This document shows, in pieces, positions 28,453 through 34,225 of a DNA stretch of 34,225 nt. Numbering within the stretch: the stretch's first letter is position 1; every line of letters begins with the position of its first letter. Position numbers and translations under genes: made by a program. The notes under the pieces were generated by a model. That model had not been told where the DNA came from. It saw only the letters and a list, made by a program, of their open reading frames with translations, and searched no databases. The DNA comes from an uncultured Erwinia sp. (GTDB taxonomy: Bacteria; Pseudomonadota; Gammaproteobacteria; Enterobacterales; Enterobacteriaceae), in contig CAJYIY010000131.1 of assembly GCA_913775305.1 (NCBI GenBank), forward strand, positions 1 to 34,225. The letters run 5' to 3'.

Positions 28453-28665
28453 GTGATTAAGATGTTAAGGTGTGGACAATGTGGAAGTACAAAATTCATC
28501 TTCACCGTGGGTGGCAGCAACGGTGGACATCATGGCGCGATTTGCGCGTGTTGTCATAAACGACTCAACATTCACGATACCCGGGTGGGTTTATCGACTT
28601 TTTCCAACGTTATGCCAACGGCGAAAATTGAAGAACAGCTTAACCGTGTGATTAAAAAACAGTAA
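28453..28665 (+). CDS. 70-residue zinc-ribbon protein, unknown function
   Basis: A small basic protein starting at the GTG at 28453, five bases after GGGAGG. It has two Cys pairs, CGQC (about residues 7-10) and CACC (about 31-34), with a GGSNGGHHGA loop between, as in one zinc ribbon. The C-terminal half is helical and polar (AKIEEQLNRVIKKQ). No known family is recognised beyond the ribbon. It stands alone, flanked by AT-rich gaps of 528 and 304 bases, with no obvious terminator. Possible roles are nucleic-acid binding or a small regulator; both are guesses. Confidence 0.7.
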   Translation: MIKMLRCGQCGSTKFIFTVGGSNGGHHGAICACCHKRLNIHDTRVGLSTFSNVMPTAKIEEQLNRVIKKQ

Positions 28666-28969: not shown

Positions 28970-29689
28970 ATGGAAAATCAGGGATTATCCGGCATTCTTA
29001 CCTGCGCGGATTCACGCTGGATTATTGTATGTGATTTTGATGGCACAATAAGTCATGAAGACGTAACAGATACATTAATGGAAAAATTTGGACACCCTGA
29101 CTGGCAATTACTGGAATCACGCTGGAAAAAGGCCGAAATAGGTTCTCGCGAATGTCTTAGTGGGCAAATATCATTGCTTGATGTTTCTCGCCAACAGATG
29201 GATACCTGCCTGGATCAAATCAGCATTGACCCGGCGTTCTCCCATTTTGTCCGCTGGGCACAAGAAGAGGCTATCCCGCTTTATGTAGTCAGCGATGGTC
29301 TCGACTACGCTATCGAGCGCATCTTAGGCAACAACAGCATCACTGGCCTGCCGGTGATTGCCAATCATCTGGAACAGATTAGCGAGCGGCGATGGCGCAT
29401 CACCTTTCCGCATTTTGACCCGAAATGTCAGTACGCCAGCGGCACCTGCAAATGTCAGGTTGCGCGTACGCTGAACGCGCACGCGTTTCTGGTTATCGGC
29501 GACGGACGTTCCGATTTCTGTGTGGCTTCCCAGGCCGACCACGTTCTGGCCAAAAAGAGCCTGCTTATTGAGTGCCAGAAAGCGGGTATCGCCCACACAC
29601 CCTTTACCCGTTTCAGCGAGGCGCGCGCCTGTATTGAAAATCTGAAGATGCAGGAGCGATTACTGATTTCTTCGCAGGAGACACCATGA
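28970..29689 (+). CDS. MtnX-like HAD-IB family phosphatase
   Basis: HAD-superfamily phosphatase of subfamily IB, 239 residues. The motifs are all present: motif I DFDGT with nucleophile Asp22 and acid/base Asp24, motif II Ser108 (YVVSDG), a Lys near 161 (GTCKCQ), and motif IV GDGRSDFC (177-184). The small Cys group (Cys153, Cys160, Cys162) resembles MtnX, the phosphatase of methionine salvage. No other mtn gene is in view, so a different phosphorylated intermediate is likely. It is the first gene of a five-gene run, overlapping the next by four bases. Exact substrate unknown. Confidence 0.85.
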   Translation: MENQGLSGILTCADSRWIIVCDFDGTISHEDVTDTLMEKFGHPDWQLLESRWKKAEIGSRECLSGQISLLDVSRQQMDTCLDQISIDPAFSHFVRWAQEEAIPLYVVSDGLDYAIERILGNNSITGLPVIANHLEQISERRWRITFPHFDPKCQYASGTCKCQVARTLNAHAFLVIGDGRSDFCVASQADHVLAKKSLLIECQKAGIAHTPFTRFSEARACIENLKMQERLLISSQETP

Positions 29690-30543
29690 TTACGCAACAC
29701 GATTATCTGTTGCAGGGCGGGCGTACCGGCGTACTGTTGATTCACGGTCTGACGGGGACTCCATCCGAAATGCGCGGCGTCGCCCGGGAGTTTCATCGGG
29801 CCGGATTCACCGTCTACGCATTACAGCTTGCCGGCCACTGCGGCAGCGTTGAGGATCTCATTGCCACCCGCTGGCAGGACTGGTATCAGAGCGTGATTGA
29901 CGGTGCTGAGAAGCTGCTTCGTCAGGTAGATACACTGTTTGTCTGCGGCCTCTCTATGGGGGCGGTTCTTGCCCTAAAATATGCGGCTTCCCATCCCGAC
30001 AGTGTTGCGGGTGTACTGGCCTACAGCGTGACGTTTCGCTATGACGGCTGGAGTATTCCGCCGCTGTCGCGCTTTGCTGCGCCGTGGCTTCTTCCTCTCG
30101 CCGGCATGCTTAATGTTGGCCGCCGAAGAATGTTCAATGAGGAGCCCCCGTACGGCATCCGTAATGAGCTGTTGCGTAAGAAAATCGCTGATAAAATGCT
30201 CAGTGGTGACAGCGCAGCAGCAGGGCTGCCGGGCAATCCCTGGTCTTCACTGAACGAATTTTTGCTGCTGTCGCGTAATGTCCGCCGTAAGCTGCATCAT
30301 ATTCATACGCCCTGCCTGCTGATACACGCCACCGACGACGATATCTCACACCGCCGCAATGCCGAACTGGTTCGCGACAGGATCGCCGGGCCGGTGGAAT
30401 TGGTGTTGTTACCTAACAGCTATCACATGATTACCATCGATAACGATCGCCAGGAGCTTTTCGAGCGCTCCATTGCCTTTATTAATCGCGTACGCATGGA
30501 AAGACTTGCGGGCACAAAGCCGACGCTGAGCGAGGCGTTATGA
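29686..30543 (+). CDS. Alpha/beta hydrolase (carboxylesterase/monoacylglycerol-lipase type)
   Basis: Cytosolic alpha/beta-hydrolase of 285 residues, without a signal peptide. The oxyanion region is VLLIHGLTGTPSEMR (about 16-30). The nucleophile elbow is GLSMG with Ser90, the acid is one of Asp217-219 (IHATDDDIS), and the base is His247 (NSYHMITID). The PSEM element after HGLTG is typical of the Est30/monoacylglycerol lipase group. It overlaps the HAD gene by four bases and the first SMR gene by four. A substrate cannot be named; an acyl ester or thioester of the cluster's product, or an editing role, are possible. Confidence 0.85.
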   Translation: MITQHDYLLQGGRTGVLLIHGLTGTPSEMRGVAREFHRAGFTVYALQLAGHCGSVEDLIATRWQDWYQSVIDGAEKLLRQVDTLFVCGLSMGAVLALKYAASHPDSVAGVLAYSVTFRYDGWSIPPLSRFAAPWLLPLAGMLNVGRRRMFNEEPPYGIRNELLRKKIADKMLSGDSAAAGLPGNPWSSLNEFLLLSRNVRRKLHHIHTPCLLIHATDDDISHRRNAELVRDRIAGPVELVLLPNSYHMITIDNDRQELFERSIAFINRVRMERLAGTKPTLSEAL

Positions 30544-30896
30544 GCCAAATCACCCTGCTGCTGTGGTTGCTAAATGTGGTGATCGACAGCCTGGGTCAGC
30601 TGTCGTTTAAAGCCGCCGCCAAAAGCAGTGCTCACATTGAGGGCATTCAACAATGGCGATTTATGCTGCAACGACCGTGGCTCTGGCTGGGAATGGCATG
30701 CTATGTCCTGGAGTTTATGCTGTGGCTGGCTTTCCTGACGCTCGTTCCTCTTTCTGTTGGCATGCTGCTTGGATCAACCAGCATCGTGACTATCATGCTG
30801 GCCGGAAGAATTTGGTTCAGGGAGTCGCTAACCCGCTGGCGCTTGACGGGCATTCTACTGATTTCGCTGGGCGTAGCGATAATAGGGATTAGCTGA
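30540..30896 (+). CDS. EamA/SMR-type small membrane protein, subunit 1
   Basis: A 118-residue protein with four predicted membrane segments (about 5-22, 48-68, 71-91, 98-117), the size of EmrE and ArnE. The first segment has DSLGQLSFKAAA (about 16-27), much like the GQLxxKxA stretch of ArnE/ArnF and EamA proteins, where EmrE has its Glu14. LGSTSIVTIMLAGRIWFRESLT is the EamA-like third-to-fourth helix part, split here in two pieces. It overlaps the hydrolase gene by four bases and its partner by one, so it probably makes an antiparallel heterodimer with it. Substrate unknown; a lipid-linked amino compound is one option. Confidence 0.82.
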   Translation: MSQITLLLWLLNVVIDSLGQLSFKAAAKSSAHIEGIQQWRFMLQRPWLWLGMACYVLEFMLWLAFLTLVPLSVGMLLGSTSIVTIMLAGRIWFRESLTRWRLTGILLISLGVAIIGIS

Positions 30897-31297
30897 TGAA
30901 ACGGTTCTATATTGTTGGTTTTCTCGCGCTGATGGTTTTCGACACCCTGGCACAGATCAGCTTCAAAGCAGCGGCCATTCATGCATCTCCACTAACGATG
31001 GACATTGCCTGGCTTTCCCGCGTATTCAGCCATCCGTGGATTTATGGTGCGTTTGTGGGCTATGCCGGGGCATTTTTCACCTGGATGACCCTGCTCAAAT
31101 ACGCCCCGATTGGTCCGGCCTTTGCTGCATCACACCTCGAAATCATCAGCGTTACGCTGCTGTCGGTCTGGTTATTTGACGACAGCCTGACGCTGACCAA
31201 AGCTCTCGGCGGCCTGTTGATCCTTGTCGGAATTCTGTTCCTCGCAAAAGGTGAAGTGGCTGAGGTCGATGAGAATGCGGAGCAGCGGGTGCCATGA
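30896..31297 (+). CDS. EamA/SMR-type small membrane protein, subunit 2
   Basis: A 133-residue homologue of the preceding gene with four membrane segments. DTLAQISFKAAA in the first helix mirrors DSLGQLSFKAAA of subunit 1. Helix 3-4 reads APIGPAFAASHLEIISVTLL, the EamA fold. The tail is acidic (EVAEVDENAEQ) and longer than in the partner. It overlaps subunit 1 by one base (TGATG) and the aminotransferase by four. Paired small SMR proteins often form heterodimers, as do ArnE and ArnF, the flippase of undecaprenyl-phosphate aminoarabinose. Confidence 0.82.
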   Translation: MKRFYIVGFLALMVFDTLAQISFKAAAIHASPLTMDIAWLSRVFSHPWIYGAFVGYAGAFFTWMTLLKYAPIGPAFAASHLEIISVTLLSVWLFDDSLTLTKALGGLLILVGILFLAKGEVAEVDENAEQRVP

Positions 31298-32538
31298 CGT
31301 GCGTTTTCAGCCGACGCCAGCTTCCTCCTACCGCCGGTCTGCCGCTTCACTGGCGCGATCTTGCAGGCCGTCACGCTGATTTTTCAGCCGATCTGGCACA
31401 GGCGCTGGGCATCCCGCCGCCGCTGTTGACCTGTTCCGGCACCGCCGCACTGATTATAGCCCTGCGTACCTTGCAGCAGCGTCAGCCGGATCGGTATCAG
31501 GTAATTGTTCCCGCCTGGACCTGCCCACTGGTCGCTCTGGCCGTTCACTACTGCCCCTCGCTCAAAATCATTCCCTGCGATATACGGCGCGGCAGCATAA
31601 ATTTCGATCGGCAAAAGCTGGCACAGTTGTGTGGATCGCAAACGCTGGCGATAGTAGTGACCCATCTTGCAGGCCGGGTTGCCGATACTGATTATGCCAT
31701 CCATGTCGCCACAGCTAACGGCGCGGCGGTGATTGAAGATGCGGCCCAGTCAATGGGGGCAAAAAATGCCGGAAAAAGCGTTGGACTGGCCGGAGATATC
31801 GGCTTTTTCAGCCTGGCGATGGGCAAGGGCCTGACGACGGCAGAGGGTGGCGTGCTGTTCAGCCGCTCTGCCGAACTGCAGGCCGCTCTGGCCCGACAAA
31901 TAGCCAGCGATTTACCCCATCACGCGGGATGGGAACTGCGCCGTATAACCGAACTCTGGTGCTACTGGCTGATGTATCATCCCGACAGGCTGGACTGGGT
32001 TTATGGCCGCCAACAGCGCGCCGCCCTGAAACGGGGCGACACAGTTGCTGCCGTTGGCGACGACTTTACCGTTGATGACATCCCTCTGCATACGCTGGGA
32101 CACTATCGTCAACGGGTGGCTGCTGCCGCTTTCAGGCGATTTCCCCTCTGGCTACTGGACAATCGCCAGCGTGCAGAAAGGCGGGTAGTTGCGCTTGAAC
32201 GGCTACCCGGCGTGACGGTGATGCAGGACGGTGCAGAGCAGCAGGGGGTCTGGCCGTTTATTTTGGTGTTAATGCCCGACGGTGCCTCACGCGACCGGGC
32301 AATGCGTCGGTTATGGTCTGCCGGGCTGGGCGTTACCCGGCTGTTTATTCACGTTCTTTCAGGTTACCCCGCCGTGCTCCCCTTTATTCAGCCAACGTCC
32401 ACACCTAATGCGGAAGATTTTGCCGCACGCTCGTTGAGTATCAGCAACAGTCACTGGGTCAGGGAAGCGGATTTCACCCGGATCCTTAATGCGTTACGCA
32501 CCGCGCTGGCCACCGAGGACGCCGCGAAGGAAAGCTAA
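31294..32538 (+). CDS. DegT/DnrJ/EryC1/StrS-type PLP aminotransferase
   Basis: A 414-residue PLP enzyme of the sugar-aminotransferase (ArnB, DegT) class. CSGTAALIIAL (about 47-57) binds the cofactor phosphate, Asp149 in VIEDAAQSMG pairs with the pyridine nitrogen, and the Schiff-base Lys is probably Lys178 in AMGKGLTTAEGG. The PAWTCPLVALAV block (about 73-84) fits the family. The middle part (about 195-260, rich in Trp/Arg) is divergent. It normally puts an amino group on a keto-sugar or keto-cyclitol; no sugar-nucleotide enzymes are in view. Its 3' end overlaps the convergent gene by 45 bases. Confidence 0.85.
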   Translation: MTCVFSRRQLPPTAGLPLHWRDLAGRHADFSADLAQALGIPPPLLTCSGTAALIIALRTLQQRQPDRYQVIVPAWTCPLVALAVHYCPSLKIIPCDIRRGSINFDRQKLAQLCGSQTLAIVVTHLAGRVADTDYAIHVATANGAAVIEDAAQSMGAKNAGKSVGLAGDIGFFSLAMGKGLTTAEGGVLFSRSAELQAALARQIASDLPHHAGWELRRITELWCYWLMYHPDRLDWVYGRQQRAALKRGDTVAAVGDDFTVDDIPLHTLGHYRQRVAAAAFRRFPLWLLDNRQRAERRVVALERLPGVTVMQDGAEQQGVWPFILVLMPDGASRDRAMRRLWSAGLGVTRLFIHVLSGYPAVLPFIQPTSTPNAEDFAARSLSISNSHWVREADFTRILNALRTALATEDAAKES

Positions 32539-33402
32539 GAGCTGCTGATTCAGCTGGTTTTGAGCCCGTTGCCACTCTGCCGCCTCACTGCTGGCGATCG
32601 GCGTTTGCCCGTCGCCAGCACTCAGCCAGCGCTTAAAGCGGCTATGATATTCACAGGATGAGACCTCCCCGGTGATGTCCATTCCCACCAGCCGATCGGC
32701 GCAGGCCTGAATCAGCAGCTCAAGATGCTTTACCTCAAAGTATCCCTGGTCCCAGTTCGTTTGCACCACCCGTTTGCTCAGCACATCTTTATCCAGCGAC
32801 AGATAAACCGGCTCTTCGCCAAGCTGGCGTAAGAATGCCGACAGCAGGCTGTCGGCATTATCAAACCGGTGGTTACATTTGCTCATTCCCAGCCAGTTAA
32901 GCCAGCGGGTATCCACGCCGATGCTCCAGTAGTGCAGCTTTTTTGCCAGCAGTGGGCTCAGATGGTTTTCCCAGGCGTGGCCAAGACCAATATCTGAAGA
33001 ACCGATGCCCAGCACGTGGATTTTATCGACCTGCGGAAGACGACTGGCATGGTAAACCCATGAGCCGCAGTGAATGCCAAACGGATAGACCATATTATCA
33101 GGGTGATTATCACAAACGATCAGCTGCACGGGCACCGCCACCGGCAGGCGCTGTAGCAGCAGGTAGCTGAGGTGATGGTAATCGCCACTGCCGGTAAATA
33201 CGCATCCATAGCGTTCGGGCAACAGGCGCTGGCATTCTGCCTCCAGCCGATGCCAGTCGGGCCAGCTGGCTCCAAAGCGAATACGCTGCTGCCAGGCCGA
33301 CATCGGCACTGTCGTTGCCCGGTCCAAACCGGTCACCGAACCATCGAAATCAAGCACCAAAGCCTGCTCTTCCGCCGTCAGGTAGTGGGGGGATCGGCCC
33401 AT
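32494..33402 (-). CDS. Arginase-fold binuclear metallohydrolase, unknown substrate
   Basis: A 302-residue protein whose metal-binding sequences fit the arginase/ureohydrolase fold: GSGDYHH (His76), CDNHPDN (Asp98, His100, Asp102) and SLDKDVL (Asp204, Asp206), in the order and spacing of arginase's His, Asp-His-Asp and Asp-x-Asp. GMDITGE (about 240-246) is like the arginase Glu region. The first 30 residues (VLDFDGSVTGLDR) are outside the typical fold. Substrate could be a guanidino group, or an N-acyl group if it acts like the deacetylase-type relatives. It overlaps the upstream acyltransferase by 25 bases, so they form an operon, and overlaps the aminotransferase tail by 45. Confidence 0.8.
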   Translation of the reverse strand: MGRSPHYLTAEEQALVLDFDGSVTGLDRATTVPMSAWQQRIRFGASWPDWHRLEAECQRLLPERYGCVFTGSGDYHHLSYLLLQRLPVAVPVQLIVCDNHPDNMVYPFGIHCGSWVYHASRLPQVDKIHVLGIGSSDIGLGHAWENHLSPLLAKKLHYWSIGVDTRWLNWLGMSKCNHRFDNADSLLSAFLRQLGEEPVYLSLDKDVLSKRVVQTNWDQGYFEVKHLELLIQACADRLVGMDITGEVSSCEYHSRFKRWLSAGDGQTPIASSEAAEWQRAQNQLNQQLLAFLRGVLGGQRGA

Positions 33403-34225
33403 TTTTTATCACTCTCAAAATAGTGGCGAAAATAACGCAGGATCCGGCGCAACAGCGGATTGCGCACGCGCACCAGATGGCGAGTGGAGGTAAAACTGGC
33501 TCCGAGACTGGCTTTAACTTCCGGATCGGTCCAGCCAGCCACGTATTCCTGTAATCCCTGTTCAATCGCGTACTCCAGATTGACAAACCAGCTGACAAAA
33601 TAGAGATTAAATTTCAGCGCCAGCGAATAATCTAAGCCAATATATTTATCCACCAGCTTGCCCTGATACTGATAACAGAGATTGAAGCCAACCAGGCGAT
33701 CTTCATGCCAGTAACAGAACACTTTTCCTGCGCTGTGCTTATCCAGCAGCAGTTGGTCAAAAAAACCGGCGCTAAGTAAATCGAAATGCACCTCGCTCTG
33801 CTGCCAGACGGAAAGGTAAAGCTGATAAAGCTGCGCACGCCAGTGCGCATCTTCAAACCGGATGTCACCGCAGGTAAGCACCTCAATACGCAACGCCGCC
33901 CGACTACGTAGCTTGCGGCGGATATTGCGCCGCCGACTGTGGGACATGCGCGCCAGGAACTCATCGGTGGTGGTAAAGTTAATCGGAACAACCGCGAGTG
34001 CCTGCCCTTCTACGCTGATATAGCCATACGCCTCTGCGGCGGCGATCAGGCGACGACTGTAGTCGTTATCTGTCGCAGGCAGCAGGGGTGAGGCAATCGG
34101 GAGATCTTTAATGATGGTCAGCGGATGCTGATTTGCACAGTGGATTTCCACCCAACGTAGCAGTACATCGGGGTCCTGCTGGCGGGGCAGACAGGCATAT
34201 TCGCTGGTCGTCGTGCCGATAAAGC
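33378..34225 (-). CDS. FemAB/BioF2-like acyltransferase, 5' end outside window
   Basis: The reading frame is open from 34225 (the window edge) to the stop at 33378, so the gene is truncated at its 5' end; a GTG at 34151 is not needed as a start. The visible 281 residues have the N-myristoyl/GNAT-type fold of the FemAB and peptidoglycan BioF2-like group: a basic stretch SRRRNIRRKLRS, GKVFCYWHEDRLVGFNLCYQ and KLVDKYIGLDYS leading to LYFVSWFVNLEYAIEQGLQEYVAG. Members transfer acyl or aminoacyl groups to an amine. It is coupled to the arginase-fold gene. The neighbouring DNA beyond 34225 is needed to judge the operon. Confidence 0.7.
   Translation of the reverse strand, partial: FIGTTTSEYACLPRQQDPDVLLRWVEIHCANQHPLTIIKDLPIASPLLPATDNDYSRRLIAAAEAYGYISVEGQALAVVPINFTTTDEFLARMSHSRRRNIRRKLRSRAALRIEVLTCGDIRFEDAHWRAQLYQLYLSVWQQSEVHFDLLSAGFFDQLLLDKHSAGKVFCYWHEDRLVGFNLCYQYQGKLVDKYIGLDYSLALKFNLYFVSWFVNLEYAIEQGLQEYVAGWTDPEVKASLGASFTSTRHLVRVRNPLLRRILRYFRHYFESDKKWADPPTT

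What the first reader, a model, noticed from the sequence alone, without database searches (positions are those of the whole stretch)
28970..34225. Uncharacterised accessory biosynthetic cluster next to pagP
Seven genes lie in two converging units. The rightward unit is HAD phosphatase, alpha/beta hydrolase, two SMR-type subunits and a DegT-type aminotransferase, every junction overlapping by 1 or 4 bases (29686-29689, 30540-30543, 30896, 31294-31297). The leftward unit is a FemAB/BioF2-like acyltransferase and an arginase-fold hydrolase. Together they supply dephosphorylation, acyl hydrolysis, transamination, amide formation or cleavage, and membrane translocation. I know no named pathway with this set. 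A small aminated, acylated metabolite or lipid-linked amino sugar is my inference. The cluster continues past the right edge.
Basis: partly seen in the sequence, partly recalled or inferred. Interest (0 to 1): 0.85.

Follow-up and report, generated by a model that had tools for sequence, protein, structure and literature searches.

The report
Conserved unstudied amine-making and transport cluster
The seven genes are most of an eight-gene set that recurs, whole or as a smaller core, in very different proteobacteria and probably makes and moves an amine-bearing compound whose identity is not yet known.

Summary
In detail: seven genes, two converging units, junctions as described. The window ends where its contig ends. 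The missing eighth gene, a class III PLP aminotransferase-like protein (AT3), is on contig C129 of the same genome, followed by sugar-acid genes, so the cluster ends there. The set recurs in gamma-, beta- and alphaproteobacteria: of 94 loci fetched, 93 hold AT3, 83 both FEM and ARG, 78 HAD, 73 both EamA subunits, 73 ABH, 52 DegT. Six of 37 genus members hold only HAD, two EamA and AT3 (four of them also ABH), in what the tree suggests are three separate reductions; these short sets are still under purifying selection. So HAD, AT3 and the EamA pair look like the core, FEM, ARG and DegT an extension. AT3 lacks two residues that bind carboxylate in GABA aminotransferase. FEM models closest to Fem/MprF aminoacyl-tRNA transferases, ARG as a ureohydrolase. 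Two-component systems, MipA/OmpV, DevBCA/TolC-like exporters, ACP/ketosynthase and cyclopropane synthase adjoin it in other lineages and favour an amine-bearing envelope lipid; a secreted small amine is not excluded. pagP is only the neighbour of the site. Substrates are unknown.

The parts
28970..29689 (+). HAD: MtnX-like HAD-IB phosphatase (core gene)
   Evidence: Pfam HAD 1.8e-09; NCBIfam DKMTPPase-SF 112.1 bits, cut-off 81.55, but MtnX equivalog 115.5 against 303.2; PDB 2fea 2.9e-23
29686..30543 (+). ABH: alpha/beta hydrolase, monoacylglycerol-lipase-like; in 73 of 94 loci, missing from two of the six short clusters of the genus
   Evidence: Pfam Hydrolase_4 4.1e-26; PDB 5xks monoacylglycerol lipase 3.1e-35
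30540..30896 (+). EamA1: small EamA/SMR-type transporter subunit (core gene)
   Evidence: EamA 27.7 bits, cut-off 28.2; ArnF/ArnE-like 27.8/26.6 bits, far under their cut-offs
30896..31297 (+). EamA2: partner transporter subunit (core gene)
   Evidence: EamA 29.4 bits, cut-off 28.2; ArnF-like 32.9, EmrE-like 25 bits
31294..32538 (+). DegT: DegT/DnrJ/EryC1/StrS aminotransferase; optional gene of the extension
   Evidence: Pfam 9.4e-38; nearest solved relatives perosamine synthetase and 2-deoxy-scyllo-inosose aminotransferase; in 52 of 94 loci
32494..33402 (-). ARG: ureohydrolase (arginase-fold) enzyme with all six expected metal-ligand positions; extension gene
33378..34223 (-). FEM: Fem/MprF-type GNAT-fold N-(amino)acyltransferase; 5' end lies on contig C129; extension gene
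34208..34225 (.). 18-base end of the window that equals the start of contig C129, which carries AT3 (C129:255-1631, minus strand)

Best explanation
This is an undescribed biosynthesis-and-translocation cluster. Core: AT3 (class III PLP enzyme) and HAD (phosphatase) make an amine from a phosphorylated keto precursor, and the EamA1/EamA2 heterodimer carries it, or a lipid bearing it, across the inner membrane. Extension: FEM, a Fem/MprF-type transferase, puts an aminoacyl or fatty acyl group on the amine; ARG removes a guanidino (urea-forming) group from the conjugate or its precursor; DegT, where present, adds a further amine; ABH hydrolyses an acyl ester. The end product is most likely an amine-bearing lipid of the cell envelope, made under envelope stress. 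Shown here: gene set, conservation, modular loss, predicted folds, metal and PLP motifs. Inferred: every substrate, the order of steps, the lipid nature and the stress role. [quoted passage not shown]
For: Co-inheritance of the genes. Core without extension in six genus members, in what the tree suggests are three separate reductions; dN/dS 0.03-0.21 between short sets L187 and L188. In 8 genomes whose fetched AT3 stretch held no EamA gene, the pair was found outside it in 7, two of these about 11 kb away on the same contig. Two genomes with the other genes but no AT3 in the fetched stretch have AT3 elsewhere. AT3: Thr at GabT's Glu211 position in 99 of 99 copies and at Arg398 in 98 of 98 that reach it, Arg141 kept in 99; RYRR[RK][YF]GHF in 99 of 99. 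FEM and ARG folds. ABH nearest monoacylglycerol lipase. Neighbours within 4 kb, of 94 loci: kinase plus regulator 37, MipA/OmpV 23, DevC-like permease 34, HlyD 33, TolC 28, cyclopropane synthase 10; ACP 9, KAS 9 in the stretch; a DevA-like ATPase 1.8e-65. P. aeruginosa MipA binds polymyxins and is induced through ParR/ParS (PMC10936184, passages). DHAP to serinol phosphate to serinol by RtxA (PMC3222319, passages).
Against: No substrate is known for any gene. None of the neighbour types tested (kinase, regulator, MipA, TolC, HlyD, permease, cyclopropane synthase) was found by the cluster in genus loci L023-L025, nor ACP or ketosynthase, so the envelope-lipid and stress link rests on other lineages, many of them close kin, and was not held against background frequency. 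The core alone contains nothing that makes a lipid. FEM may use acyl-CoA as well as aminoacyl-tRNA; the fold does not decide. Loss of GabT's carboxylate-binding residues also fits a racemase, lyase or mutase. No sequence comparison with RtxA was made; the serinol route is an analogy. In one near-identical pair of short sets (L185, L186) dN/dS of EamA2 is 0.35 and of ABH 0.25 on very few changes.
Confidence: 0.4

Rival explanations
1. The cluster makes a small secreted amine or peptide-like metabolite (antimetabolite, signal or metallophore): AT3 and HAD make an amine, FEM adds an aminoacyl group from tRNA, ARG trims an arginyl side chain, and EamA1/EamA2 or a tripartite pump exports it.
For: FEM's nearest solved folds are the streptothricin-type aminoacyl-tRNA-dependent synthases Sba18/Sbb17; the minimal core HAD + AT3 + EamA pair is soluble chemistry plus an exporter; a DevC-like permease adjoins in 34 of 94 loci and TolC in 28.
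Against: AT3 is 73-96% identical to the first of 14 rows and still 76-77% in Bartonella and Brevundimonas, steadier than usual for antibiotic clusters (recalled generality); ACP/KAS and cyclopropane synthase neighbours point to acyl chains. No peptide-synthetase gene was noticed in the annotated stretches, but none was searched for.
Confidence: 0.3
2. An Arn-like pathway that puts an amino sugar on a lipid carrier or lipid A, with DegT as transaminase and EamA1/2 as ArnE/ArnF-like flippase.
For: DegT's nearest solved relatives act on keto sugars and cyclitols; EamA1/2 hit ArnE/ArnF models; kinases like RstB and QseC/PmrB in two lineages scanned; dTDP-rhamnose genes and glycosyltransferases lie some kb from the cluster on two Bartonella plasmids, and a GT9 gene 1.5 kb from AT3 in L189.
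Against: DegT is not seen in 42 of 94 loci, or 33 of the 62 with long flanks, in five compact versions of two other genera, nor in the six short-set genus members; no glycosyltransferase in the window's cluster; ArnB, ArnE and ArnF cut-offs missed by far.
Confidence: 0.12
3. A catabolic or detoxifying route for a guanidino or polyamine compound: ARG releases urea, the aminotransferases remove amines, and EamA1/2 carry amines.
For: ARG resembles agmatinase, guanidinase and metformin hydrolase; class III aminotransferases include putrescine and GABA enzymes.
Against: FEM was not found in the six short-set genomes, nor ARG in their loci or in the one genome searched, yet the short sets are under selection; FEM, HAD and ABH have no clear place in such a route; no dehydrogenase or uptake system was noticed among the neighbours shown as clusters 7-11, 15, 20, 22, 23 and 28.
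Confidence: 0.1

Closest known systems
MprF/Fem/VlmA-type aminoacyl-tRNA transferases (lysyl-PG synthase, FemX, valanimycin VlmA)
   Same: FEM's predicted fold; the idea of an amino acid put on an amine or lipid that is then flipped
   Different: separate EamA pair and partners AT3, HAD, ARG; donor untested; a GlnRS-like gene lies near the cluster in 12 loci, probably a housekeeping gene (my reading of its first residues)
Arn (4-amino-4-deoxy-L-arabinose) lipid A modification
   Same: a DegT aminotransferase and a pair of small EamA subunits; a QseC/PmrB-like kinase nearby in one lineage scanned
   Different: DegT optional; no glycosyltransferase, formyltransferase or deformylase among the window's genes; equivalog cut-offs missed
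RtxA serinol route of rhizobitoxine synthesis
   Same: PLP amination of a phosphorylated C3 ketone, then dephosphorylation, would be the same chemistry as AT3 + HAD
   Different: no sequence comparison with RtxA was made; substrate of AT3 unknown; AT3 has no second domain
Bacterial sphingolipid/ceramide clusters (recalled)
   Same: PF04339-type N-acyltransferase and, in some Lysobacterales, an ACP beside it
   Different: no serine palmitoyltransferase-like gene noticed in the set; none was searched for in the genomes
DevBCA-TolC glycolipid exporter of Anabaena
   Same: DevA/DevB/DevC-like genes and TolC adjoin the cluster in about a third of loci
   Different: below the Dev family cut-offs; not found beside the cluster in genus loci L023-L025

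Membership tests
Arn pathway | ArnB transaminase (NF008658 cut-off 631 bits) | tested here: not met
   DegT scores 62.2 bits
Arn pathway | ArnE/ArnF flippase subunits (cut-offs 92 and 99 bits) | tested here: not met
   EamA1 26.6 and 27.8, EamA2 20.3 and 32.9 bits
Arn pathway | glycosyltransferase ArnC/ArnT and ArnA/ArnD within the window's cluster | tested here: not met
   none among the seven window genes; next gene is AT3, then GntP and four sugar-acid genes
Fem/MprF aminoacyl-tRNA transferases | double-GNAT Fem/MprF fold | tested here: met
Fem/MprF aminoacyl-tRNA transferases | use of aminoacyl-tRNA | not testable with these tools
   needs an assay; by recall PF04339 relatives may use acyl-CoA
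Ureohydrolases (arginase family) | arginase fold and six Mn-ligand positions | tested here: met
Ureohydrolases (arginase family) | Pfam PF00491 gathering score 22 | tested here: inconclusive
   21.6 bits for the window copy
Class III aminotransferases | PLP lysine and aspartate motifs | tested here: met
   K[AS]LTNG in 98 of 99, DEIQMG[FY] in 95 of 99; L113 is cut by a contig edge
GABA aminotransferase-type class III enzymes | Glu211 and Arg398 of GabT | tested here: not met
   Thr at both: 99 of 99 and 98 of 98 (mapping; residue roles recalled)
MtnX phosphatase | TIGR03333 cut-off 303.2 bits | tested here: not met
   115.5 bits; the wider DKMTPPase-SF subfamily is met
DevBCA exporter (neighbour genes, not window) | TIGR02982 / TIGR01185 / TIGR02971 cut-offs | tested here: not met
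   L005 220.7 of 295.8, L087 54.2 of 290.35, L099 66.9 of 129 bits
Bacterial ceramide synthase (recalled as a PF04339 member) | PF04339 domain | tested here: met
   48.1 bits, cut-off 27
Bacterial ceramide synthase (recalled as a PF04339 member) | acylation of a sphingoid base, with serine palmitoyltransferase in the genome | not tested
   no search made

The most novel reading that the evidence does not exclude
A new, widespread class of amine-bearing envelope lipid whose head group starts from a phosphorylated C3 ketone (AT3 + HAD), is loaded with arginine from Arg-tRNA by FEM, and is then changed to ornithine on the lipid by the dedicated ureohydrolase ARG: aminoacylation followed by trimming of the attached residue.
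Probability: 0.12. Interest if true: 0.9.

Novelty: new variant of a known kind. Interest (0 to 1): 0.6.

Why it matters
A pathway kept by gamma-, beta- and alphaproteobacteria, including insect-gut symbionts and plant-associated species, with a PLP enzyme under very strong constraint (dN/dS about 0.02-0.03 within the genus), would add a new amine-bearing metabolite or lipid to bacterial envelope chemistry. Natural strains with the core alone and with the full set give a ready-made comparison to find what each half makes.

Tried and rejected
Rejected: foreign-DNA signal (GC 55.5% in the cluster, 54.0% in window 1-28900). pagP as functional partner: pagP is in 34 of 37 genus genomes and beside the sugar-acid genes also where the cluster is absent, in 4 of 4 such sites looked at, out of 27 genomes without AT3. 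Exporter swap in Dyella (DevBCA in place of EamA): rejected, the EamA pair lies elsewhere in those genomes. Deacetylase-type role for ARG: not favoured, both metal sites are kept.

Results that do not fit neatly: L131 holds FEM, ARG and the EamA pair without HAD, ABH, DegT or AT3 in 19.9 kb, and L032 has no AT3 in its stretch; both genomes have AT3 elsewhere. In Bartonella HY406 the plasmid's ARG is about 40 kb from HAD. Dyella clusters are split, with ARG not found in three of five genomes. One MAG (L100) gave neither ARG nor EamA1.

Led nowhere: scan of genome contigs with the window DegT found no relative by tblastn. Ten paper searches were made; those aimed at the set listed no paper whose title or abstract start shows this cluster, those on background were. 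The library holds open-licence papers only, so this does not prove absence. FEM profile against PDB sequences gave nothing. Not done: background frequency of the neighbour genes; sequence comparison of AT3 with RtxA; pocket modelling; a positive control inside (tblastn found FEM in L184 and L024 but not in L185-L190).

Ascertainment: 80 of the 94 loci were found through AT3 and 14 through DegT, so counts are conditional on these; some stretches are cut by contig ends; many Gilliamella and Dyella loci are close kin. Bars for 'has gene' are blastp E <= 1e-10 to a few query proteins.
Full report
What is there. Pfam and NCBIfam support HAD, alpha/beta hydrolase (ABH), two EamA subunits, DegT aminotransferase, a weak arginase match (ARG) and a FemAB-like/Acetyltransf_6 protein (FEM). 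None of the seven reaches the NCBIfam cut-off of a named pathway enzyme. The window is a whole contig, C131 of G000, and the cluster runs off its end.

The missing gene. In the same genome a class III aminotransferase-like protein, AT3, lies at C129:255-1631 on the minus strand, 95% identical to that of a genus member. The first 18 bases of C129 repeat the last 18 of C131; a match to residues 1-87 of the relative's FEM follows at C129:2-262, then AT3, then a GntP permease and four sugar-acid genes. The cluster therefore has eight genes here: HAD-ABH-EamA1-EamA2-DegT rightward, AT3-FEM-ARG leftward.

Conservation. The same genes lie together in most of 14 stretches around DegT from the genus and other families. 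AT3 relatives came from 80 named loci of, among others, Erwinia, Sodalis, Acinetobacter, Gilliamella, Snodgrassella, Frischella, Orbus, Bartonella, Acidovorax, Delftia, Variovorax, Alcaligenes, Brevundimonas, Dyella and Xanthomonas, the best 80 of 581, most with the same neighbours. Of these 94 loci, 93 hold AT3, 83 ARG, 83 FEM (the same 83), 78 HAD, 74 EamA1, 74 EamA2 (73 both), 73 ABH, 52 DegT, 9 ACP and 9 KAS; 48 hold all eight and 69 all but DegT. Of the 62 with at least 4 kb beyond the cluster on both sides, the numbers are AT3 62, ARG 54, FEM 54, HAD 55, EamA1 50, EamA2 50, ABH 50, DegT 29, ACP 1, KAS 1. The loci were chosen through AT3 (80) or DegT (14). Distances of all 28 gene pairs correlate (r 0.69-0.91; 0 of 500 permutations reached the value for any pair); relatedness alone would give part of that. 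In samples of 398 genomes of the phylum, the own genome included, DegT was found in 10 (E <= 1e-50) and ARG in 16 (E <= 1e-20), so the set is widespread but patchy. Five genomes of two unnamed genera (g180 in the same class, g252 in another class of the phylum) have a compact form, ARG, EamA, HAD, AT3, ABH and, in four of the five stretches, FEM, without DegT; the fifth stretch starts at a contig end. DegT relatives are on plasmids of Xanthomonas sacchari, Roseomonas and Bartonella; in Roseomonas a HemL-like class III enzyme sits in AT3's place, and in Bartonella HY406 ARG lies about 40 kb away on the same plasmid.

Core and extension. In the genus, AT3 is in 10 of 37 genomes (E <= 1e-150) and DegT in 4 of 37 (E <= 1e-40). 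Six genomes hold a shorter set: HAD-ABH-EamA1-EamA2 with AT3 (L185-L188) or HAD-EamA1-EamA2 with AT3 (L189, L190). FEM was not found in any of these six genomes (without its own positive control), nor ARG in the one searched. A tree of the four shared proteins puts the short sets in three places among full ones. The fork that holds L025 with L185 and L186 has support 93/92 only, and L025 is a long branch flagged as unsure. Between the short sets L187 and L188, dN/dS is 0.11 HAD, 0.14 ABH, 0.14 EamA1, 0.21 EamA2, 0.03 AT3; between the window and L023 or L024, 0.025-0.12 over the eight genes. The short sets are thus still selected. In Erwinia sp. JUb26 (L035) a possible remnant of FEM's first part remains (E 0.03, a weak match). 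In three Dyella genomes ARG was not found while AT3, HAD and the EamA pair were.

The site. pagP is not part of the system. Four genus members without the cluster have pagP, a 70-residue ORF and the GntP/sugar-acid genes in a row, GntP being in pieces in one (L194); three genus members carry the short set elsewhere than at pagP.

Neighbours. Within 4 kb: sensor kinase plus regulator in 37 of 94 loci, MipA/OmpV in 23, DevC-like permease in 34, HlyD in 33, TolC in 28, cyclopropane synthase in 10. The two kinases scanned are nearest to RstB (L055) and to QseC, with PmrB third (L005). In X. sacchari regulator, kinase, TolC, a permease ORF (not scored), DevA-like ATPase, HlyD-like gene, ABH, EamA1, EamA2 and DegT run in one direction. 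P. aeruginosa MipA is a polymyxin-binding co-sensor of ParR/ParS (PMC10936184, passages). DevBCA-TolC in Anabaena exports glycolipid (recalled; papers seen in a search listing). Accessory genes that build (ACP, KAS) or alter (cyclopropane synthase) acyl chains, and lipid-type exporters, favour an acyl-bearing envelope product. No background frequency was measured, close relatives are over-represented, and none of these neighbours was found by the cluster in L023-L025. Against a plain lipid reading, dTDP-rhamnose and glycosyltransferase genes lie near the Bartonella plasmid clusters and a GT9 gene near AT3 in L189.

Reading. AT3 and HAD make an amine, EamA1/EamA2 move it or its lipid, FEM and ARG elaborate it, DegT and ABH add or remove groups. 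An amine-bearing envelope lipid is my first choice (0.4), a secreted amine or small peptide-like product second (0.3). Serinol from dihydroxyacetone phosphate is one precursor that would fit, by analogy with RtxA, whose N-terminal domain does this (PMC3222319, passages). A paper on tRNA-dependent ligases describes other clusters, built round a methionyl-tRNA synthetase paralog, in some of which GNAT enzymes, arginase and PLP enzymes occur (PMC2922099, passages); it is a precedent for the logic, not this set. Lysyl-diacylglycerol (PMC10580965, abstract and outline) shows that lipids other than phosphatidylglycerol are aminoacylated.

Verdict. A real, conserved, apparently undescribed pathway built of known enzyme families; the chemistry is open but directly testable.

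Noticed in passing
window 28453-28665: A 70-residue ORF with CxxC pairs next to pagP matches (47-70% identity) at the pagP site of genus members with and without the cluster.
   Followed up: partly
L184:2071-7149 (G000:C129): A GntP permease and four sugar-acid genes (dehydrogenase, SBD_N/NBD_C kinase-like, class II aldolase, xylose-isomerase-like) flank the cluster beyond AT3.
   Followed up: partly
L035:11377-13128: Erwinia sp. JUb26 lacks ABH, DegT, ARG and most of FEM, leaving HAD, EamA1/2 and AT3 open and a weak match to FEM's first residues.
   Followed up: yes
L042 and L043: Acinetobacter rathckeae EC24 has two copies of the cluster on one contig, in opposite orientation and with the same gene positions in both loci.
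   Followed up: no
L006:5467-14166: In Roseomonas mucosa a HemL-like class III enzyme stands where AT3 would, and an undecaprenyl-diphosphate phosphatase gene follows DegT.
   Followed up: partly
L048, L049, L055, L057, L059-L069, L073-L076: The cluster recurs in insect-gut bacteria of several groups (Snodgrassella, Orbus, Gilliamella, Frischella, Bartonella), many beside a two-component system and, in Gilliamella, MipA/OmpV.
   Followed up: partly
L005:15458-16978: An ACP and a FabF-like ketosynthase lie inside the cluster in Xanthomonas sacchari; 9 of the 94 other loci hold such genes in or by the cluster.
   Followed up: partly
L055:18258-19940: A gene whose start reads like glutaminyl-tRNA synthetase lies near the cluster in 12 loci; probably housekeeping, but of interest if FEM uses charged tRNA.
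   Followed up: no
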